A stretch of DNA of 64,000 nucleotides from Ruminococcus sp. Lineage in GTDB: Bacteria; Bacillota; Clostridia; Oscillospirales; Ruminococcaceae. Positions 41,587 through 51,735 of this stretch are shown here, in pieces; position 1 is the stretch's first letter, and every line of letters begins with the position of its first letter. Below the pieces are notes generated by a model. The model saw nothing but the letters and a program-made list of their open reading frames with translations. It searched no databases and was not told the DNA's origin. A program made the translations under genes and the position numbers. Location: the NCBI GenBank assembly GCA_017525915.1, contig JAFXSC010000018.1:62001-126000 (forward strand), given 5' to 3'.

Positions 41587-42405
41587 TCAGTTCTTTGCGT
41601 TCCGGCGCATCCGGTAAAACTGGGCGCACTGGACGTATCTTCCGGAGAAGGCTGTTTCCTCGCTGCGGTCGAACAGCATCCTGCAAATACTGAGGACTGT
41701 GCTGTATTTCTTCGCGTTGCGGGTGTTTATACATCTGCTGAATTCCGCCCTTATATCGTGCGGAGCGGGAACTTCATCAAGGAAGGATACTGCTTCTTTC
41801 AGAAGGTGGGTGCTGTGAGGGTCGGCAGTGAGCTTCATGAGCATTGCGGAAGCCGCTTTTATGATGCGGTTTTCCGCGCGATCCGGCGTGAATACATCGT
41901 GCCGCACATAGACACGTTCGCGGTGGACGAGATTGCGCCGGATATTCTCCGGGAACAGGATGGTCCCGTGGACCGCGGTCATGTTCTCCTCACGGCTCTT
42001 ATAGGCTGAGAGAACGCCGCTCTTGATTATCTTCATCGTCTCGCCTGCAAAAATGGAAATAAAGTATTCCATGAAGTTCATGCCGGGACGCAGACCGGAT
42101 TCGCTGAATTTATATCCGCAGCGCTTGCAGAACTCGGCGCACAGCACCTTTCTTGCAAAATCGGTGTCCTTTCCGGCAGGCGGCAGCACCTCTATCAGAG
42201 TACCGTCAGTGAGCAGGGCAAATCCGCAGTATGCCCCTGCGTTGAAGCAGCTTACCCCGTGCCTGCGTCCGACGGTTATAGCTTTTCTGCCCTCAGCCGC
42301 ACAGACTTCCGCGAACTCGCCGAGCATTTCGGAAAGCCGCTGGTTCTCGGGGGAGCATTCAAGTATCATTTCATGTGCTGAGACACAAATATGTCTGGTG
42401 TACAT
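41587..42405 (-). CDS. mcrC: McrC-like restriction component, truncated
   Basis: The 272-residue protein resembles McrC, the partner that supplies the nuclease of McrBC methyl-dependent restriction. Visible family elements are VGRRHGVSCFNAGAYCGFALL, read in parts, LPPAGKDTDFARKVLCAEF, and the domain around TAVHGTILFPENIRRNL. It stops soon after KKYSTVLSICRMLF, just where other McrC proteins enter the PD-(D/E)xK nuclease; no Asp...Asp-x-Lys motif is visible. E. coli McrC is 348 residues with catalytic residues at about 244-259. Only 40 bp separate the stop from a terminator, so the tail is not present in another frame. It follows mcrB by 15 bp with GGAGAATAAA upstream. Confidence 0.82.
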   Translation of the reverse strand: MYTRHICVSAHEMILECSPENQRLSEMLGEFAEVCAAEGRKAITVGRRHGVSCFNAGAYCGFALLTDGTLIEVLPPAGKDTDFARKVLCAEFCKRCGYKFSESGLRPGMNFMEYFISIFAGETMKIIKSGVLSAYKSREENMTAVHGTILFPENIRRNLVHRERVYVRHDVFTPDRAENRIIKAASAMLMKLTADPHSTHLLKEAVSFLDEVPAPHDIRAEFSRCINTRNAKKYSTVLSICRMLFDRSEETAFSGRYVQCAQFYRMRRNAKN

Positions 42406-42420
42406 TTTATTCTCCGTTCA

Positions 42421-44178
42421 TCATGGATTGTCCTTGTAGATGTTTATGAAGTGCTCCTTGTTCCAGTTCATCGGATTGCCGAGGCGGTAGAGCTTGTGTC
42501 CCGAGTCGAACTGCCTGATATATTTCGGCGTGATGCACTCGATGAAGGTGTTCTTGTCGTTGAGTACGAGCCTTATCCTTTCGTAGTCGTCGAAGAAGTA
42601 TTCCTGCAAGAGAGGGATTATCTTTGTGGAGAATACAGACCTGAGCTCCAGAAGGGTGGTGATGCAGCCGCGGTTGTTGATGAAATATGCGTGACCAATG
42701 GCGTGCTCACGGTCGTAGTAATACTCTATGCGCTCGTTCAGCGCGGTGAGGAGCTGGCAGAGGTCAACGCCTTCGCAGTTTCCGAGCAGGGAAGGCTGCG
42801 GCATCATCTCGATGAAGTCGAATCTTCGCCTCAGAGCTGTGTCGAGCATGGCGATGGAGCGGTCGGCGGTATTCATCGTGCCGAGAATATAGAGATTGGG
42901 CGGAACGGAGAATTCGGTCTGCGAATAGGGGAGAATGACCGATGTTCCGCGCTTTGACTCCTCGATAAGGGTTATCAGCTCACCGAATATCCTTGATATG
43001 TTTCCGCGGTTTATCTCGTCGATGATAGCAACAAAGCTCATGTTCGGGCTCTTTGAAGCCTTCTCGCAGAGGGTCTTGAAAATACCGTTGAAGGCACGGT
43101 AAATTACCGTAGTATCGGCGTGTGCGGTGTTTGTGTCGTTACCGTATTTGTCAACGATGACGGGACGGATACCCTCGACGAATTCCTCATAGTTGAGCGA
43201 CTGGTGGAAGGTCGTGAACTTTATTCTTCCGGTGGAGGTATACTGCGCGAATCTTGCCTTTATTGCCGAATACGGCTCCTCGGGCGGAGTTTTTTTGCCT
43301 TCGATGAGCTCAACGGCATATTTCACGACATTGTAGGTCTTGCCGGTGCCGGGAGGGCCGTAGAGTATTGTATTCAGCGCAGGCTTGAGGTTGCTGAGCT
43401 GGTGCTCGGCGAGAGTATCGGTCGGCTGGAGGACATCGGTCTCCTCTTTGAGCATTTCCCACGACATATCGTCAAACACTTTCATGCTCTTGAACTTGAA
43501 GTGAGAATCACGGTAGGACAATATCTTCTTGCTGTTGGAGATATACTTTGTGATATCGTCCGCTGATTCAAGCTCTATGCCGAGTTCACGGAAGACAAGC
43601 TGATCCGTAACTTCGTCGCCGAGTATCGGGAAGGTGAACGGCTTCATGCAGTGAAGTATCCTCGACAGCGCAAATACCGGCAGACCGGAGTCCTTAAGCT
43701 GGGAACTGAGCATTTTCTTTGCGGTATCAAGCAGTTCTTCGTCATTTTCAAGCTCTGCGATATTTATGCACATCTTGAAAAAGAACTGTATCATCTCAGG
43801 TCTTTTGGCAATGGGATAATCCCTGAAAGTTACCGGCGTTGTGAGAAATTCCATTTCCTTGTCATGGACGATATGGGTATAGAGCGTCCGTGAGCCCTTG
43901 CTCCATATTTTTTCGAGCCTTCTGTCGAGCAGGAGCTTGTCGTTGTGGAGCAGGTGGGACTTCTGTATCTGCTGCTTGCGCTCGCTTTTTTCGGTTTTCC
44001 ACAGACCGAGTGAGAGACCGTAGAGGAGGTCGAGGTCATTGAAGTCGATTATCCCGGTCTTACGCAGGTTTGAATAGCATTCTACTGCCGCGCGTACGGA
44101 GCGGTAGGTTCCGTCATATTCATTAGGCAGGATCTCATTTTTGTGCTTTAGTTCGTCGATTATAGTGGTTTTATCCAT
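42421..44178 (-). CDS. mcrB: McrB-type AAA+ GTPase
   Basis: The 585-residue protein has the McrB GTPase core in its C-terminal half: Walker A LYGPPGTGKTYNVV (about residues 268-281), Walker B FVAIIDEINRGNISRIFGEL (about 378-397) and the McrB signature LGTMNTADRSIAMLDTALRR (about 429-448). The N-terminal half (about 1-260) is not the E. coli McrB DNA-binding domain and is not recognised; it probably supplies a different target specificity. It is the first gene of the pair, with a good promoter (44214-44242) and an AAAGG site. Confidence 0.9.
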   Translation of the reverse strand: MDKTTIIDELKHKNEILPNEYDGTYRSVRAAVECYSNLRKTGIIDFNDLDLLYGLSLGLWKTEKSERKQQIQKSHLLHNDKLLLDRRLEKIWSKGSRTLYTHIVHDKEMEFLTTPVTFRDYPIAKRPEMIQFFFKMCINIAELENDEELLDTAKKMLSSQLKDSGLPVFALSRILHCMKPFTFPILGDEVTDQLVFRELGIELESADDITKYISNSKKILSYRDSHFKFKSMKVFDDMSWEMLKEETDVLQPTDTLAEHQLSNLKPALNTILYGPPGTGKTYNVVKYAVELIEGKKTPPEEPYSAIKARFAQYTSTGRIKFTTFHQSLNYEEFVEGIRPVIVDKYGNDTNTAHADTTVIYRAFNGIFKTLCEKASKSPNMSFVAIIDEINRGNISRIFGELITLIEESKRGTSVILPYSQTEFSVPPNLYILGTMNTADRSIAMLDTALRRRFDFIEMMPQPSLLGNCEGVDLCQLLTALNERIEYYYDREHAIGHAYFINNRGCITTLLELRSVFSTKIIPLLQEYFFDDYERIRLVLNDKNTFIECITPKYIRQFDSGHKLYRLGNPMNWNKEHFINIYKDNP

Positions 44179-44331: not shown

Positions 44332-45126
44332 CTATTCCGCGTCGGCAGCCTTTTTCGTGAAAAGCTTGGAGGGACGGTGTCCTGCACCGCCTTCTATACC
44401 GCCGGTCTCCTCGACATATGGTGCGATCTTCCGCCTGAAATTAGCCATAAGCAGCTTCCTGTCAAGTATAGCCTCATATATCTGCTGGAGCTCCGTGAGC
44501 GTGAATTTCTCCGGCAGAAGCCTGAAAGCGGCATAGGGCTTTTCGAGACTGCTCCTCAGCTTCAGCATGGCGTTGACGATGATCTCGGCATGGTCGAACG
44601 CAAGGCTGTTTTTCGGGATATCTGCCTTTGCCGACTGGTTGTAGAGCTCGTTGGTGTTGTTCAGCCTTACTTCGGAGACATACTCGCTGCCGTCGTCACC
44701 GGTCAGCACGAGAGTGTGTCTGTCGTCGGCAGAACTGAGCGATACCTCGTACCAGCCGGCGTTCTTTCCGATCGCTGCCTTGGTGTAGTCGATGACGGTC
44801 CAGTAGCAGCAGGAAATAATCCAGCCCCTCGGATCCCTGCCGCAGCGCGAGAGGTTGCACAGCAGCGAGAGCGGAGGGGAGTCCACACCCGTTTTCTCCT
44901 TCAGCTTGCGGAAAGCGGTCTCCTCGATAGTTTCCTCGCGGCAGCAGAACCCCCCCGGGAGCGCGGGCATATTTATGAAGGGCTCCTCTGTGCGCTTTAC
45001 GAGAAGCACCGAAAGTACGGGCTTTGAGAGGTGACGGTAGCTTTCGCCGGTGCTTTTGCGGACGGTAAAAACAACGATATCGGCAGCAACGGACGGGCGG
45101 TCGTATTTAGTAATATCGTAATCCAT
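44332..45126 (-). CDS. NrtR-like Nudix transcriptional regulator
   Basis: The 264-residue protein has an N-terminal Nudix domain (about residues 8-165) whose box reads GGFCCREETIEETAFRKLKE; the usual REUxEE is partly changed (RKLKEK), as is common in NrtR regulators that bind ADP-ribose without hydrolysing it well. The C-terminal part (about 170-250; FTLTELQQIYEAIL and KLLMANFRRKIA) matches the winged helix of NrtR. Other NrtR proteins control NAD metabolism genes. It is divergent from the J-domain/vWA/PurA-like operon, with four repeats of a 24-bp motif between them. AGGAGGTACCT precedes the ATG. Confidence 0.87.
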   Translation of the reverse strand: MDYDITKYDRPSVAADIVVFTVRKSTGESYRHLSKPVLSVLLVKRTEEPFINMPALPGGFCCREETIEETAFRKLKEKTGVDSPPLSLLCNLSRCGRDPRGWIISCCYWTVIDYTKAAIGKNAGWYEVSLSSADDRHTLVLTGDDGSEYVSEVRLNNTNELYNQSAKADIPKNSLAFDHAEIIVNAMLKLRSSLEKPYAAFRLLPEKFTLTELQQIYEAILDRKLLMANFRRKIAPYVEETGGIEGGAGHRPSKLFTKKAADAE

Positions 45127-45139
45127 AGGTACCTCCTTT

Positions 45140-45163
45140 GATAGTATCTGAATAATAATAACA
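45140..45163. promoter_or_regulatory. 24-bp motif copy A
   Basis: GATAGTATCTGA followed by ATAATAATAACA. It overlaps the -10 box of the minus-strand promoter of the NrtR-like gene (TTGACA 45184-45179, 18-bp spacer, TATTAT 45160-45155). Confidence 0.6.
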
Positions 45164-45184
45164 CAAATCGGCTGCCGGTGTCAA
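45155..45184 (-). promoter_or_regulatory. Promoter of the NrtR-like gene
   Basis: Minus-strand TTGACA (45184-45179), 18-bp spacer, TATTAT (45160-45155). It gives a short leader of about 25-30 nt. Confidence 0.75.
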
Positions 45185-45246
45185 TAGTTTTGTTTTAGTG
45201 AGAAGTAAGCAGGGGACGCCGCAATTTCTTGTGAAATTTATATATA

Positions 45247-45270
45247 GATAATATCAAAATAATAATAACA
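45247..45270. promoter_or_regulatory. 24-bp motif copy B
   Basis: GATAATATCAAA followed by ATAATAATAACA; differs from copy A at three of 24 positions. Confidence 0.6.
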
Positions 45271-45304
45271 AGCTGTGCAAAACGAAGAAACTGTTCCCGG
45301 ACTA

Positions 45305-45333
45305 TTGACAAATTCGATTGATAGTGCTATTAT
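45305..45333 (+). promoter_or_regulatory. Promoter of the J-domain/vWA/PurA-like operon
   Basis: TTGACA (45305-45310), 17-bp spacer, TATTAT (45328-45333), overlapped by motif copy C. Confidence 0.8.
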
Positions 45334-45343
45334 GATAATAACA
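45320..45343. promoter_or_regulatory. 24-bp motif copy C
   Basis: GATAGTGCTATT followed by ATGATAATAACA; covers the -10 box of the plus-strand promoter. Confidence 0.55.
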
Positions 45344-45381
45344 AAAGGATATTAACTGAGCGGTTTTAATTTTCGTCCTTT

Positions 45382-45405
45382 GATAATATCATTTTGTTTT
45401 TAACG
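45382..45405. promoter_or_regulatory. 24-bp motif copy D
   Basis: GATAATATCATT followed by TTGTTTTTAACG; a more diverged copy in the leader, containing the perfect palindrome TGATAATATCA (45381-45391). Confidence 0.45.
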
Positions 45406-45420
45406 CAAGGAGGGGGTAAG

Positions 45421-46392
45421 ATGGACATATCCGATATCCTGAAATGCAAGTGCTGCTGCGATATCTTTCCGGAGGACGCAAACCTCGCTCAGCCGCTTTA
45501 CATGGCGCTGATGCTGAAATACCACCCGGACAGGTGCAGCGACCCGAGAGCGCCCGAGGCTTCGGCGGTCATAAACGAGCTCTACGGCAAGCTGAAAAGG
45601 CAGACCGCTTTTCAGGAAAAGCTGTTTCACTCCGGAAGCAGGGCTGTTGAGATAAAATATCTCATGGAGCTCACGCAGGAATACGGCGCAGAATACGTCG
45701 GCGACAGGAACGTTTTTCTGCTCATAGACAGCGGTTCAGCTGACTGCTTCACCGCTTCGGAGGCGCGTTCTGACCTGTTTTTCAGGGAGTACCTTCCTCA
45801 GCACATACTGGCGCAGGCGGAGGTATTCCTCCCGGTCGTCTCACAGGTATTCGATACCGATGAAGGGCTTCTCGCCGTGACCTGCAAGCGTGCCGGAGAA
45901 CTGCCGCTGACAAAGGTGCTGGATTTTTACGGTGGAAAACTCGACAGCCGCCACGCCGCGTGGATCATCTCCCGTCTGCTCGGAATGTGCTGCTACGCGG
46001 AGACGAGAGGGATAGTCTGGAACTGTCTCGCGGAGGAAAATCTGCTCATCGATCCGGCTGAGCATACCGTAAGAGCTGCCGGCGGCTGGTGGTTTGCCGC
46101 GGCTGAGGGGAACAAGATGACCGGCGTGCAGTCAAGCGTATACGATTCGCTTCCGGCGCAGACAAAGACTGACGGTACTGCACGGCACATCGGCGACCTC
46201 GAATGTGTCAAGGCTCTGGCGAGGAGGATACTTCCCGATGATGCGCCGGAAGCCGTCAGAGACTATGCGGAGAGCGTGAGCAGCAGCTCTGCATACGAGG
46301 AGATGGAAAAATGGGAGGAAGCCATAATACGCGGCTTCGGCGGAAGAAGATTCACACAGATGAACGTCAGACTGCCTGATATTGCAGGCTGA
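45421..46392 (+). CDS. J-domain / pseudokinase-like protein
   Basis: The 323-residue protein has an N-terminal J-domain-like segment with the diagnostic HPD (residues 35-37, in LMLKYHPDRCSD) flanked by helices. The C-terminal part (about 85-300) resembles a protein-kinase fold; the segment matching the catalytic loop reads RGIVWNCLAEENLLIDPAEH and that matching the DFG region reads RAAGGWWFAA. The catalytic Asp residues are missing, so it is probably a pseudokinase. Similar J-domain/pseudokinase proteins occur next to vWA genes in some mobile elements, as far as I recall. AAGGAGGGGG precedes the ATG at 45421. First gene of the operon. Confidence 0.75.
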   Translation: MDISDILKCKCCCDIFPEDANLAQPLYMALMLKYHPDRCSDPRAPEASAVINELYGKLKRQTAFQEKLFHSGSRAVEIKYLMELTQEYGAEYVGDRNVFLLIDSGSADCFTASEARSDLFFREYLPQHILAQAEVFLPVVSQVFDTDEGLLAVTCKRAGELPLTKVLDFYGGKLDSRHAAWIISRLLGMCCYAETRGIVWNCLAEENLLIDPAEHTVRAAGGWWFAAAEGNKMTGVQSSVYDSLPAQTKTDGTARHIGDLECVKALARRILPDDAPEAVRDYAESVSSSSAYEEMEKWEEAIIRGFGGRRFTQMNVRLPDIAG

Positions 46393-46417
46393 GAATAACT
46401 TTACAGGAGGTATTTTT

Positions 46418-47326
46418 ATGGGATACGGTGCATGGAGCTCAGCAGACTGGAAAAAGTATTCGTCTGCGAAAATAAGCGGAAAAAAGGTAAACGACATTTA
46501 CAGCGCAACTAAGCTCGACCCGAAGTATGACCCGAAAATGATAAAGGTCAGGGAAAGCTTCGATTCGGCTGACCACCCTGTAACAACTCCTATCATTATC
46601 GGGCTTGACGTTACAGGTTCGATGAGCGACCTTCTCGACGTTACAGCGAAGAAGCTCGGTGAAATGGTAAAGGACATTCTCGAACGCCAGCCCGTTGAGG
46701 GACCGCAGATAATGTTCTGCGCCGTGGGCGATTCACGCTGCGACCGTTCACCCTTGCAGGCTACACAGTTCGAGTCGGACATACGCATCGCAAGCCAGCT
46801 CACAGACCTGTGGTTCGAGAAGGGCGGCGGCGGCAACCGGTTCGAGAGCTATCCGCTGGTGTGGTATTTCGCGGCAAACAAAACAAATACCGACGCATGG
46901 AACAAGCGCAGGAAGAAGGGCATCATCTTCACTCTCGGCGATGACGGCTTCCCTGAAAAGCTCCTTAAAATGGAGATAGAAAAGGTCTTCGGCGATAATG
47001 TCAGGGAGGATATCGACACAGAAGCCCTTCTTGCTCAGGTGAACAGAAAATACGACGTCTTTCACCTTATGGTGATGGACGGACGCAGTGAAGAAGTGGT
47101 CAAGCTTCCGGAATGGCGCAGGCTCATGGGCGAAAGGGCAATCGCGGTCACTGACGTGGACGCTATTCCCGAGATAATCGTTTCGCTTCTTGAAAGCGTT
47201 GCCGGAAGGGACACAGAGGACATTATCAATTCATGGGACGGAGATACACGGCTTGCCGTAAGGAACGCTATCGGAGGACTTCCGGCGCGGAAAAGGAGTG
47301 CGGTGAGCGGCATTGTAAGATTCTGA
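46418..47326 (+). CDS. vWA (MIDAS) domain protein
   Basis: The 302-residue protein has a von Willebrand factor A fold in residues about 45-270, with the metal-ion site motif IIGLDVTGSMSDLLD (DxTGS/DxSxS type), a further acidic/GGGGNR segment and a late GDDGFPE loop. No signal peptide is present, so it acts in the cytoplasm, probably as an assembly or scaffold protein. It starts 25 bp after the J-domain gene (AGGAGGTATTTTT at the start) and is followed 9 bp later by the PurA-like gene. Confidence 0.85.
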   Translation: MGYGAWSSADWKKYSSAKISGKKVNDIYSATKLDPKYDPKMIKVRESFDSADHPVTTPIIIGLDVTGSMSDLLDVTAKKLGEMVKDILERQPVEGPQIMFCAVGDSRCDRSPLQATQFESDIRIASQLTDLWFEKGGGGNRFESYPLVWYFAANKTNTDAWNKRRKKGIIFTLGDDGFPEKLLKMEIEKVFGDNVREDIDTEALLAQVNRKYDVFHLMVMDGRSEEVVKLPEWRRLMGERAIAVTDVDAIPEIIVSLLESVAGRDTEDIINSWDGDTRLAVRNAIGGLPARKRSAVSGIVRF

Positions 47327-47335
47327 GGTGATATT

Positions 47336-48538
47336 ATGAAAAAGGCATACGCGGTGATAGGTGCAAATTTCGGCGATGAGGGCAAAGGTCTGATGACCGA
47401 TATGTTCTGCCGGTCCGATGATAACGTCATAAATATCCGCAGCAACGGCGGCGCTCAGGCAGGTCATACCGTCTGCACATCTGACGGCAGAAGACACGTT
47501 TTCTCCCACATAGGCGCCGGCAGCTTCGCAGGTGCGGATACCTTCCTTTCGGAGTATTTTATCCTTAACCCCATGCTTTTTTCAAGGGAAGTGAACGCTC
47601 TCGGGAACGATGCCGGAAACATCTTCATCGACCGCAGGTGCGCGGTCACGCTCCCGTGCGATATGCTGCTCAATCAGGCTGTTGAGAAAATGCGCGGAAA
47701 GAGCCGTCACGGGAGCTGCGGTGTCGGCATATTCGAGACTATCGTGCGGAACCGCGACAGCAGATATGCCCTGAAATATGAGGATATGCTGAGGTCGGAC
47801 AGGAAATCGCTTGCCGCGCTGATAGGCAGGATGAACCGGGAGTGTTGTCCGGCGAGAGCAGATGAGCTCGGCATTACAGGCATTGCAAGGGAGGAGCTTC
47901 TTGATATCCTTGGAAGCGCGGAGCTGACGGAGGACTGGCTCGACAGCTTTTACTCAATGGTGGCACTTTGCAGTGAGGCGGACGAGCAGCTTATCGAGGA
48001 GTACGATACAGCTGTGTTCGAAGGCGCACAGGGGCTTATGCTCGATCAGGACAGAAACGATTATTTCCCCAATCTTACGCCTTCCAGCACAGGCATGAAG
48101 AATATACGCGCGATACTTGACAGGCTTGAAAAGCGCGATACAGAGATCTGCTATGTCACACGCTCCTTCTTCACGCGCCACGGTGCAGGACGGTTTGATA
48201 CGGAATCAAAGGACATTGCGGAGATGTACGGTCTTTACGACAGGACGAACGCTCCCAACGAGTTTCAGGGTAATTTCCGGTACGGCTGGTTCGACCTTCC
48301 CGAGTTCATGGCTTCGCTCACCCTCGACAGGAGGTACATCGCGGAGGGCGAAAAGCTAGCGGTATCGGTAACACATCTCGATATGACTGGGGGAATGGTG
48401 CTCTGTCCGACCGGCAGGCTCATGCCGGAGGATATCGCTTATATGGCGATAGCTGACAGGCTGTACAAGGTAAGCGGCGAGACTGCGGACGATGTTGTAT
48501 GTCAGGAGGTAATGACAAAGCCTCTGGCAAGGAGGTAA
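47336..48538 (+). CDS. Adenylosuccinate synthetase (PurA) paralogue
   Basis: The 400-residue protein keeps main PurA signatures: GANFGDEGKGLMTDMF at the N-terminus (Asp of GDEGKG, unlike viral PurZ, where it is Ser), NGGAQAGHTV, FSHIGAGSFAG in place of the HLIPSG loop, and FEGAQGLMLDQDRNDYFPN. The C-terminal region has TRSFFTRHGAGRFDTE. PurA joins IMP and aspartate with GTP. The sequence differs clearly from housekeeping PurA, and no other purine gene is nearby, so it may act on another nucleotide substrate. It shares an operon with the J-domain and vWA genes. Confidence 0.85.
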   Translation: MKKAYAVIGANFGDEGKGLMTDMFCRSDDNVINIRSNGGAQAGHTVCTSDGRRHVFSHIGAGSFAGADTFLSEYFILNPMLFSREVNALGNDAGNIFIDRRCAVTLPCDMLLNQAVEKMRGKSRHGSCGVGIFETIVRNRDSRYALKYEDMLRSDRKSLAALIGRMNRECCPARADELGITGIAREELLDILGSAELTEDWLDSFYSMVALCSEADEQLIEEYDTAVFEGAQGLMLDQDRNDYFPNLTPSSTGMKNIRAILDRLEKRDTEICYVTRSFFTRHGAGRFDTESKDIAEMYGLYDRTNAPNEFQGNFRYGWFDLPEFMASLTLDRRYIAEGEKLAVSVTHLDMTGGMVLCPTGRLMPEDIAYMAIADRLYKVSGETADDVVCQEVMTKPLARR

Positions 48539-48546
48539 GTGTTAAG

Positions 48547-48576
48547 GTGCAGGGGGGAGTCCTCCCTGCACTTTTT
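48547..48576 (+). terminator. Terminator of the J-domain/vWA/PurA-like operon
   Basis: GTGCAGGG (48547-48554) / CCCTGCAC (48564-48571) followed by TTTTT. Confidence 0.9.
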
Positions 48577-49784: not shown

Positions 49785-50600
49785 ATGACCCGTAACAACC
49801 ATTTGATAAGGAATATCATTCTAATAGCGCTGATAATGTGCGGACTTTCGCTGTCGCTCATGCTCCTGACCAAGACAAGAGAATACAATAACAGGAAAAT
49901 GACGATAGATGTCGATACAATGAAGCTCGTCCAGCTCGATCCGCCGCAGGAAGGCGACCCTGTTGCCATTGTGGATACGACGATCGGCGAGGTGAGATTC
50001 AGGCTCTATCCGGAATACTCCCCCGAAGCTGTCAGGAATTTCGTTGAGCTTGCAGAAAGCGGCTACTACGACGGCACTTATGTCTTTGATGCAATGAACG
50101 GGGCTTACGCGAGCATGGGTGCTCCCAACAAGGACGGCTCCCTCAATGTCAGTTCGTCAAGCAGTCAGGAACGCATAAAGCGCGAACTCAATCAGGATCT
50201 CTGGCCGTTCCGCGGCACGGTCTGCCTTTTCAACAATACCTTCAAAAGGACGTTCAAGCAGTATATTTTCGGCGGCGGTACCTACTACTGCGGAAGCCGT
50301 TTCACTATGCTCAACTCCGTCCTGTTCAACGATGAGTTCAAGCAGGAGATAAGAGAGAGCTCCGTAAGCAGTGAGCTTGCGGAAGCCTTTATTGAAAAGG
50401 GCGGTATCCCGAATTATTCCCAGCAGTTCACTATTATCGGTCAGACCTATCAGGGACTTGACGTTGTCGATGCTCTTGCATCGCTCCCTTCACGCAATGA
50501 CGGCGAACACCATGTGCCGCTTGAAGAAGTGAAGATCAACTCCGTAAAGATAGATACCTATCATGCAGCAGATGCAGAAAACGGCACGGAACAAAAATAG
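49785..50600 (+). CDS. Membrane-anchored degenerate cyclophilin
   Basis: The 271-residue protein has an N-terminal anchor (about residues 8-28) and a cyclophilin-like domain (about 60-260): VAIVDTTIGEVRFRLYPEYS, VRNFVELAESGYYDG and a late FTIIGQTYQGLDVVDALASL. The catalytic FHR/QGGD region is replaced by VFDAMNGAYASMGAP, so peptidyl-prolyl isomerase activity is doubtful; a chaperone or binding role is more likely. It precedes a canonical cyclophilin lipoprotein with its own promoter. Confidence 0.82.
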   Translation: MTRNNHLIRNIILIALIMCGLSLSLMLLTKTREYNNRKMTIDVDTMKLVQLDPPQEGDPVAIVDTTIGEVRFRLYPEYSPEAVRNFVELAESGYYDGTYVFDAMNGAYASMGAPNKDGSLNVSSSSSQERIKRELNQDLWPFRGTVCLFNNTFKRTFKQYIFGGGTYYCGSRFTMLNSVLFNDEFKQEIRESSVSSELAEAFIEKGGIPNYSQQFTIIGQTYQGLDVVDALASLPSRNDGEHHVPLEEVKINSVKIDTYHAADAENGTEQK

Positions 50601-50670
50601 TGCATTTCAATAAATATTGCCCGGAAGGTAAGCGGCTTTGCCCGTTTGTTACAAAAATCCGGCGCAGCTA

Positions 50671-50699
50671 TTTACAAATCAAGGTTTTTGCTGTATAAT
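50671..50699 (+). promoter_or_regulatory. Promoter of cyclophilin gene 2
   Basis: TTTACA (50671-50676), 17-bp spacer, TATAAT (50694-50699). Confidence 0.75.
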
Positions 50700-50766
50700 G
50701 TTTAGGCTAGAAAGATTTGGGTAAATTACTTGATTTCACTATTATTATTCAGGGAGTGAAATTTTA

Positions 50767-51735
50767 ATGCTTAAAGCACGAATGGCAGCCGTTCTTTGCT
50801 GCCTGCTTGCCGCATCTGCACTCGTTTCCTGCGGCGAAAAGAACATAAGCGTTTCAGACGTCACCACTACCGAGGCTGCCACACAGGCTGCAACCAATGA
50901 GCCTGTTGCTATCGGTTCGGATGTCAGGAACTTCACCGCTCCCCAGGACGGTGAGGAGGTCGTTGTACTTACGGTCAAGGGCTACGGCGATATCAGGATA
51001 AAGCTCTTCCCGGAATATGCCGAAAAAGGCGTTGAGAACTTCAAGACCCTCGCTGAACAGGGCTACTACAACGGTATTATTTTCCACAGAATAATCAATA
51101 AATTCATGATACAGGGCGGCGACCCCACCGGTACAGGCAGGGGCGGCAGTTCCATTTGGGGCAGCAAGTTCGAGGGCGGCACAGACCCCCACCTCGTTCA
51201 CGTTGCCGGTGCTGTTGCATACGCAAACAGCGGCGCTACTTCCACGAATGGCAGCCAGTTCTATATCGTGACCGGCCAGACCTTCACGGAAGATCAGTTC
51301 GCGCCTACTTACCCCGAGTCTGCAAAGGAAGCTTATCTCAAGGCAGGCGGTTATCCGTGGCTTGACGGCGGTTACACGGTATTCGGTCAGGTCTATGACG
51401 GACTTGATGTTGTGTTCAAGCTCCAGCAGGTGCAGACCGATTCAAGCGATAAGCCCCTCACAGACGTCGTTATCGAATCCATGAGAGTCGAGAAGTACGA
51501 CGGCAGGGCGATGAAGTGGTATGCGACCGACTATCCGGGATTAAGGTCCGCTGAGACGACTACCGAGGCTTCTTCTGTGGCTTCCTCGGAGACGACAGGC
51601 GAAGCTTCGTCCGAAGCCGCTTCCACTACCGCAGAGTCTGAACAGCAGACTACTACAACAGAGACAACGACCGCGGAGCTCCAGACCTCCACGGAAACAA
51701 CCACTACCGGGGCTTCCCCGGCTGATGCCCAGTGA
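50767..51735 (+). CDS. Cyclophilin-type peptidyl-prolyl isomerase lipoprotein
   Basis: The 322-residue protein has a lipoprotein signal (LLAASALVSCGE, Cys at about residue 19) and an intact cyclophilin domain (about 60-235): VENFKTLAEQGYYNGIIFHR, MIQGGDPTGTGRGG with the catalytic FHR and QGGD, NSGATSTNGSQFYI and YTVFGQVYDGLDVV. A Thr/Ser/Glu-rich low-complexity tail (about 265-322) may extend into the wall. It assists folding of exported proteins. Followed by murA. Confidence 0.93.
   Translation: MLKARMAAVLCCLLAASALVSCGEKNISVSDVTTTEAATQAATNEPVAIGSDVRNFTAPQDGEEVVVLTVKGYGDIRIKLFPEYAEKGVENFKTLAEQGYYNGIIFHRIINKFMIQGGDPTGTGRGGSSIWGSKFEGGTDPHLVHVAGAVAYANSGATSTNGSQFYIVTGQTFTEDQFAPTYPESAKEAYLKAGGYPWLDGGYTVFGQVYDGLDVVFKLQQVQTDSSDKPLTDVVIESMRVEKYDGRAMKWYATDYPGLRSAETTTEASSVASSETTGEASSEAASTTAESEQQTTTTETTTAELQTSTETTTTGASPADAQ

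What the first reader, a model, noticed from the sequence alone, without database searches (positions are those of the whole stretch)
44332..48576. NrtR-like Nudix regulator divergent from a J-pseudokinase / vWA / PurA-paralogue operon
An NrtR-like regulator (Nudix box with changed REUxEE plus winged helix) faces an operon of three genes that do not look like ordinary metabolism. These are a J-domain with HPD joined to a kinase fold lacking catalytic Asp residues, a cytoplasmic vWA protein with an intact DVTGSMS metal site, and a PurA paralogue that keeps GDEGKG but has a changed HLIPSG and TRSFFTRHGAG region. NrtR proteins sense ADP-ribose, so one hypothesis is a system that makes or modifies a nucleotide in response to NAD or ADP-ribose levels, perhaps in defence or stress, given the mcrBC pair next to it. 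The gene order and operators are seen; the function is inference.
Basis: partly seen in the sequence, partly recalled or inferred. Interest (0 to 1): 0.82.

Follow-up and report, generated by a model that had tools for sequence, protein, structure and literature searches.

The report
Phage-linked vWA and PurA-like module
A rumen bacterium carries, under what looks like an ADP-ribose-sensing switch, its own copy of a gene set that also occurs in phages and plasmids: an unusual relative of a purine-synthesis enzyme that almost always travels with one partner protein, and whose job is not yet known.

Summary
The divergent NrtR-type regulator and the J-domain/pseudokinase, vWA-like and PurA-like (PurAL) genes recur together in the Ruminococcus flavefaciens group and in plasmids; in phages the set occurs without NrtR. 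Of 80 viral contigs chosen only for the vWA gene, 78 carry PurAL on the same strand. PurAL forms a clade apart from housekeeping PurA and PurZ; it keeps PurA's D13, K16, H41 and Q224 but lacks R303 and other contacts. The gene upstream of vWA is exchanged between lineages. Five operator-like palindromes fill the divergent promoter. McrBC is an incidental neighbour. In phages a NAMPT gene lies within 8 kb of vWA in 7 of 14 contigs that have one (1.4 expected; post hoc test). Best reading: an undescribed, mobile, NAD/ADP-ribose-linked module in which a PurA-derived enzyme, with a vWA partner and an exchangeable adaptor, modifies a 6-oxopurine other than free IMP. Module identity is well supported; substrate and role are inference.

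The parts
44332..45126 (-). NrtR-type regulator: degenerate Nudix domain plus NrtR winged helix
   Evidence: Pfam NUDIX and NrtR_WHD over cut-off; below the NCBIfam NtrR equivalog cut-off, 116 against 400 bits
45140..45404 (.). five operator-like palindromes: 45140-45162, 45247-45269, 45320-45342, 45334-45356, 45382-45404
   Evidence: arrangement conserved in 12 aligned intergenic regions
45305..45333 (+). operon promoter-like TTGACA-N17-TATTAT; the -10 box lies inside the 45320-45342 palindrome
   Evidence: TTGACA kept in 12 of 12 aligned regions
45421..46392 (+). J domain (HPD) joined to a kinase-like domain lacking both catalytic Asp
46418..47326 (+). vWA-like protein with invariant LDVTGSM motif (core gene 1)
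   Evidence: fold not confirmed
47336..48538 (+). PurAL, a distinct branch of the adenylosuccinate synthetase superfamily (core gene 2)
48547..48576 (+). terminator-like hairpin followed by a T run
   Evidence: read by eye

Best explanation
The locus is one bacterial version of a widespread, horizontally moving module whose core is a gene pair: a vWA-like protein and PurAL, a distinct branch of the adenylosuccinate synthetase superfamily. The gene upstream of the pair is exchangeable: J-pseudokinase here, Zn-ribbon pseudokinase or a Met-rich family elsewhere. In several bacteria the module is placed under an NrtR-type repressor. Proposed working: (1) NrtR binds the palindromes, one of which covers the -10 box, and keeps operon and regulator low (sites shown, binding inferred). 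(2) ADP-ribose, raised when NAD+ is broken down, binds the degenerate Nudix domain and releases NrtR (inferred from the NrtR family). (3) PurAL uses a nucleoside triphosphate to phosphorylate the 6-oxo group of a purine and swaps it for an amine, as PurA does: the P-loop Lys and PurA D13, H41, Q224 and T239 are kept. The substrate is probably not free IMP, because N38 is Gln, T300/T301 are replaced and R303 is missing. D13, which is Ser in PurZ, suggests hypoxanthine rather than guanine as the base (inferred). (4) The vWA protein and the adaptor present the substrate or a client, with Hsp70 recruited by the J domain where there is one (inferred). The likely setting is recovery from, or counter-measure to, NAD+ or nucleotide damage in phage-host conflict (inferred).
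For: vWA and PurAL together in 16 of 16 R. flavefaciens-group loci L003-L018 and in 78 of 80 viral contigs, all 78 on the same strand, 72 with PurAL starting within 1 kb after vWA; 19 of the 20 listed vWA plasmids have a listed PurAL match beside it. PurAL clade of 104 rows apart from 25 canonical PurA and 2 PurZ rows. Kept and lost residues in 21 of 21 or 20 of 21 rows. Partner exchange: 8 label changes needed on a 61-row PurAL tree. Operators over the promoter; sites with at most one mismatch only here in the whole genome. NAMPT within 8 kb in 7 of 14 contigs, 1.4 expected, P 0.0002. Different chromosomal settings.
Against: No biochemical or structural data; structure prediction unavailable. 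vWA fold unconfirmed. The NAMPT test is post hoc (chosen because it recurred most), the contigs are not independent, and the 5-kb radius gives P 0.01. RlaP, an RNA-repair gene, is not closer than chance. The nearby phage genes are mixed. NrtR was not found beside the module in the 80 viral loci, nor in 3 of 14 evaluable R. flavefaciens-group loci, nor in the Zn-ribbon type. PurZ also lacks R303 and has Cys or Ser at 129 yet uses IMP-like dGMP and aspartate, so these losses alone do not exclude an ordinary nucleotide substrate. The Allorhizobium copy has HTD instead of HPD.
Confidence: 0.45

Rival explanations
1. PurAL makes a soluble modified nucleotide, a messenger or protected nucleotide, with vWA and the adaptor as regulators: the first reader's idea, parallel to PurZ making a dZMP precursor.
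For: Superfamily chemistry; D13, H41, Q224 kept; PurZ precedent (PMC8342488, passages).
Against: No Z-genome genes were looked for or seen beside it; no effector or receiver gene recurs in the loci; the obligate vWA and chaperone-like partners fit a larger substrate better.
Confidence: 0.25
2. It is a phage-derived RNA-repair or translation-rescue module: PurAL acts on a purine in damaged RNA, with RNA-binding partners, and bacteria have domesticated it.
For: RlaP, Thg1, TROVE, DUF2828/DUF7788 and Band 7 genes recur around phage copies.
Against: RlaP is not closer to vWA than chance in 9 records tested; the other families were not tested; none is seen in the Ruminococcus loci opened, judged by cluster membership only.
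Confidence: 0.15
3. It is an anti-phage defence operon allied with mcrBC.
For: Adjacency in this window; patchy, mobile distribution.
Against: McrBC not conserved beside it; no PADLOC match; carried by phages themselves.
Confidence: 0.08
4. It is a spare copy of ordinary PurA.
For: PF00709 over the gathering cut-off.
Against: Below the PurA equivalog cut-offs, outside the housekeeping clade, R303 missing, and paired with vWA in nearly all loci seen.
Confidence: 0.03

Closest known systems
ARG-centred Nudix/WYL-regulated systems predicted by Iyer et al. 2022 (PMC9503650, section 3.8 read)
   Same: Nudix-sensor repressor of the NrtR kind, vWA partner read as a chaperone, exchangeable parts, ADP-ribose theme
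   Different: The defining ADP-ribosyl glycohydrolase (and usual phosphatase) is absent from the operon; a PurA-derived enzyme takes the place; the section does not mention PurA, and one search found no PurA or adenylosuccinate in the paper
PurZ, 2-amino-adenylosuccinate synthase of Z-genome phages (PMC8342488, passages)
   Same: Phage-borne branch of the PurA superfamily; R303 missing; H41 and Q224 kept
   Different: PurZ has Ser at D13 and lies on a separate long branch; PurAL has Gln at N38 and Gln at T301, and comes with vWA
Housekeeping PurA
   Same: Superfamily fold by sequence, P-loop, D13, H41, Q224, T239
   Different: Separate clade; Asp- and IMP-contact positions changed; linked to vWA
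TerY-P triad (vWA, PP2C, kinase; definition recalled)
   Same: vWA beside a kinase-like protein, with a Zn ribbon in the type II loci
   Different: No PP2C seen in the operon; the kinase-like domain lacks catalytic Asp; PurAL present
NARP1 phage NAD+ reconstitution (PMC12774641, search listing only)
   Same: Phage-borne, tied to NAD+ depletion
   Different: Different enzymes (Adps, Namat); any link is thematic

Membership tests
NrtR regulators | Nudix domain joined to the NrtR winged helix | tested here: met
   Both Pfam models over cut-off
NrtR regulators | Operators at its own and the operon's promoter | tested here: met
   (sites only, no binding)
NrtR regulators | Binds ADP-ribose | not testable with these tools
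   Needs an assay; equivalog cut-off not reached, 116 against 400 bits
Adenylosuccinate synthetase (PurA) | PurA equivalog score | tested here: not met
   112.8 against 402, 95.1 against 395.6
Adenylosuccinate synthetase (PurA) | R303 contact for Asp and IMP O2' | tested here: not met
   Gap in 21 of 21
Adenylosuccinate synthetase (PurA) | Groups with housekeeping PurA | tested here: not met
PurZ | PurZ model score and Ser at D13 | tested here: not met
   40.6 against 300 bits; D in 21 of 21
ARG-centred ADP-ribose systems | ADP-ribosyl glycohydrolase in the operon | tested here: not met
   No such Pfam match in the four proteins
ARG-centred ADP-ribose systems | Nudix or WYL regulator | tested here: met
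J-domain proteins | HPD motif in a J domain | tested here: met
   HPD in 30 of 30 rows of A4; profile hits DnaJ structures; Pfam below cut-off for the window protein
Active protein kinases | HRD and DFG Asp | tested here: not met
   Window: Cys and Gly; relatives: 6 of 30 and 0 of 30
vWA domain | vWA fold with MIDAS | tested here: inconclusive
   Motif invariant 32 of 32, weak Pfam hits, no PDB hit, hhalign only on the motif at 4-6% probability
TerY-P triad | PP2C phosphatase gene | tested here: not met
   No PP2C Pfam match in the four proteins; definition recalled
Known anti-phage defence systems | Match to a PADLOC model | tested here: not met
   No family up to E 1 for any of the four

The most novel reading that the evidence does not exclude
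PurAL with vWA re-aminates hypoxanthine in something larger than IMP (deaminated NAD or ADP-ribose, or inosine in nucleic acid). Phages use it, and cells switch it on through an ADP-ribose sensor, to undo nucleotide or cofactor damage inflicted in phage-host conflict: a purine-repair route built from a purine-synthesis enzyme.
Probability: 0.12. Interest if true: 0.92.

Novelty: categorically new. Interest (0 to 1): 0.74.

Why it matters
It joins three phage protein families that are filed separately (PHROG 1211, 2971, 3043) into one system shared by phages, plasmids and gut bacteria. It suggests that the label '2-aminooxy adenylosuccinate synthetase' on many phage genes is wrong, and offers a further branch of the adenylosuccinate synthetase superfamily whose substrate could be found with standard assays. 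The NrtR switch gives a testable link to NAD+ depletion, a main weapon in phage-bacterium conflict.

Tried and rejected
Housekeeping PurA, PurZ, mcrBC-allied defence and active-kinase readings were tested and rejected. RNA-repair linkage: such genes recur as neighbours, but RlaP closeness is no better than chance. That test used 9 of the 10 records over the cut-off; phage I3 was left out because its RlaP and vWA lie at opposite ends of a record noted as circularly permuted (about 4 kb apart if joined), and three sub-cut-off records were left out. A wider NrtR regulon: outside this locus the pattern has 40 strand-matches with 2-3 mismatches against 24 for the reversed control in the whole genome, a modest excess; six site-bearing regions were read by eye without a family search, and no NAD-biosynthesis gene was recognised, so further targets are not excluded. 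Confirming the vWA fold by PDB profile and hhalign failed. A phylum-wide search found no carrier besides the own genome in the same 398 genomes, by single sequence or by profile at E 1e-20. L019 (91 PurAL residues) was dropped from counts. For the trees, rows outside 330-500 residues (the intein-bearing PurAL of L062, cut-off ends) were dropped; 16 near-duplicates were named for removal before (61 rows used).

Papers. PMC9503650: abstract, outline, section 3.8 and passages. Passages only: PMC7159879, PMC7824862, PMC8342488, PMC12884076. Search listing only: PMC12774641, PMC11090510. Burroughs and Aravind 2016 (PMC5062991) is not held and de Souza and Aravind 2012 was not looked up, so an earlier mention there is not excluded. 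'Not found in print' rests on searches.
Full report
What is there. The window lies in a genome of the Ruminococcus flavefaciens group (best named relatives of PurAL 74-79% identical). An NrtR-type regulator (44332-45126, minus strand) faces an operon of J-pseudokinase, vWA-like protein and PurA-like enzyme (PurAL), which ends in a terminator-like hairpin. The genome has its own housekeeping PurA on another contig, 26-30% identical to PurAL.

The control region. Five copies of a palindrome (full form GATAATATC-N5-GATATTATC in relatives such as L008) lie in 45140-45404: 10 of the window's 12 strand-matches, against 0.25 expected for the whole window (the pattern was written from these regions). 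The operon promoter reads TTGACA-N17-TATTAT at 45305-45333 and its -10 box lies inside one palindrome. TTGACA and the sites are kept in 12 aligned intergenic regions. In the own genome, sites with at most one mismatch occur only here, so the regulator looks local, though weaker sites elsewhere are not excluded. Three loci without an adjacent regulator gene (L004, L016, L018) show similar sites by eye.

Co-occurrence. In the R. flavefaciens group, vWA and PurAL are together in 16 of 16 loci (L003-L018); the J-pseudokinase is missing in L017 and cut off in L015; NrtR is divergent in 11 of the 14 loci with enough upstream DNA. A genome of another genus in the family has NrtR, a Met-rich protein (F4), vWA and PurAL in one direction. 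Plasmid copies from Acetobacter, Allorhizobium and Rhodococcus have J-pseudokinase, vWA and PurAL in a row. Allorhizobium has NrtR divergent as in the window; Rhodococcus has a NUDIX gene with a sub-cut-off NrtR_WHD match after PurAL; Acetobacter has NrtR-like pieces in two frames. Of the 20 listed vWA plasmids 19 have a listed PurAL match beside it (the twentieth, Rhodovulum, is not among the 45 PurAL rows listed of 80). In the phage collection, vWA relatives occur in 207 and PurAL relatives in 224 of 50,697 records (the latter may include ordinary PurA). Of 80 viral contigs kept for vWA alone (the best 80 of 324) 78 carry PurAL, all on the same strand, 72 with PurAL starting within 1 kb after vWA. 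Of the two without, L092 ends 0.4 kb after vWA, and L041 has 3.3 kb more without it. No NrtR was seen in these 80 loci; five weak hits are 345-377-residue frames, and the one tested is a NadM-Nudix enzyme.

Three architectures in one genus. 33 of 120 genus genomes carry the vWA. Twenty loci were opened (at least 10 are contigs already seen, by length): 11 of the window's type, 1 with NrtR, vWA and PurAL but no J, 4 with tandem vWA genes (in one, L196, the J-like gene and one vWA were not called as open frames), and 4 of type NrtR-F4-vWA-PurAL. NrtR is adjacent in 9 of the first 12. Two further loci (L157, L158) are of the tandem-vWA type, whose first gene has a Zn-ribbon-like start before the pseudokinase part and no NrtR beside it. 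In 398 genomes of the phylum only the own genome matched; in 148 of the family, 3 including the own. The sites differ: the window's neighbours were not found beside the module in the other loci, and in the relative with the most similar flanking gene (G609) the interval holds other genes while its module lies on another contig. This fits a mobile module.

The exchangeable gene. In the 80 viral loci a J-pseudokinase is found in 33, an F3 protein in 14, F4 in 10 and none of these in 23; no locus has two. F3 and F4 are related (hhalign 95.6%). On a 61-row PurAL tree the label needs 8 changes (shuffled mean 23.2; well-supported branches alone force at least 3 for J), so the partner is inherited but exchanged repeatedly. 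HPD is invariant in 30 of 30 aligned rows but reads HTD in the Allorhizobium copy. The DFG Asp column has no Asp in 30 rows; the HRD Asp column has Asp in 6, so loss of the first Asp is not universal.

The enzyme. PurAL forms a clade of 104 rows apart from 25 canonical PurA and 2 PurZ rows (quick method, SH-aLRT 96-99, midpoint root). Against E. coli numbering, 21 of 21 aligned rows keep D13, K16, H41, Q224 and T239; N38 is Gln in 20 of 21; T129 is Cys in 20 of 21; T301 is Gln and R303 is absent in 21 of 21; T300 and K331 are replaced in all; D333 is Asp in 16. PurZ too lacks R303 and has Cys or Ser at 129, so these two are not peculiar to PurAL; Gln at 38 and 301 and retained D13 are. New motifs are RHGSCG, TRHGAG and N-x-x-QG. 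PMC8342488 (passages) says that R303 contacts aspartate and O2' of IMP and that a Ser in PurZ sits next to the 2-amino group of dGMP. Roles of the other numbered residues are recalled. That the base is hypoxanthine and the substrate not free IMP is my inference. One phage PurAL (L062) has an intein-like insertion right after the catalytic His.

The NAD link. In cells it is the regulator. In phages, of 50 long records (all 47 of the 80 contigs of at least 60 kb, plus three phage genomes) 14 have a NAPRTase/NAMPT-family gene, 7 of them within 8 kb of vWA against 1.4 expected (P 0.0002; P 0.01 at 5 kb, 0.0005 at 10 kb). NAMPT was picked because it recurred most, and the contigs are related, so the P value is optimistic. 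RlaP, tested the same way, is not enriched nearby. NADAR and TROVE genes are annotated near a Vibrio phage copy.

Other readings. McrBC is an accident of this genome. None of the four proteins matches PADLOC. The nearest described logic is the ARG-centred Nudix/vWA systems of PMC9503650, whose defining hydrolase is absent here.

Shown and inferred. Shown: gene order, operator-like sites, co-occurrence, separate PurAL clade, residue changes, partner exchange, NAMPT proximity (post hoc). Inferred: repression and ADP-ribose release, vWA fold, Hsp70 recruitment, chemistry and substrate, role in conflict. The novelty grade is for the system; each domain belongs to a known superfamily, and two likely papers could not be or were not read.

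Noticed in passing
L062:3403-5925: A phage PurAL gene is interrupted by an intein-like insertion directly after the catalytic His of the QAGH motif.
   Followed up: partly
L157:4430-8453; L158:6415-10406: Variant operon in the same genus: Zn-ribbon-like start plus pseudokinase part, two tandem vWA genes, then a divergent PurAL; no NrtR beside it.
   Followed up: partly
L024, L025, L026 (phage records): PurAL genes of phages carry labels such as '2-aminooxy adenylosuccinate synthetase', a PurZ-like name; the aligned rows keep D13 and do not look like PurZ.
   Followed up: partly
window 41587-44178: McrB-like and McrC-like genes stand next to the module in this genome only, among loci examined.
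   Followed up: yes
L027:6124-6836: The NrtR-like gene beside the Acetobacter plasmid copy is split over two reading frames.
   Followed up: no
L101:372-956; L025:5717-6544 and relatives: Uncharacterised family (F3/F4) with a Met-rich C-terminal part, directly or closely upstream of vWA where no J-pseudokinase is found; no Pfam match for the two tested.
   Followed up: partly
window 49785-51735: Two tandem genes about 29% identical to each other (cyclophilin-like by eye, no family search) lie just downstream; matches to the first occur in 60 of 60 genus genomes searched.
   Followed up: no
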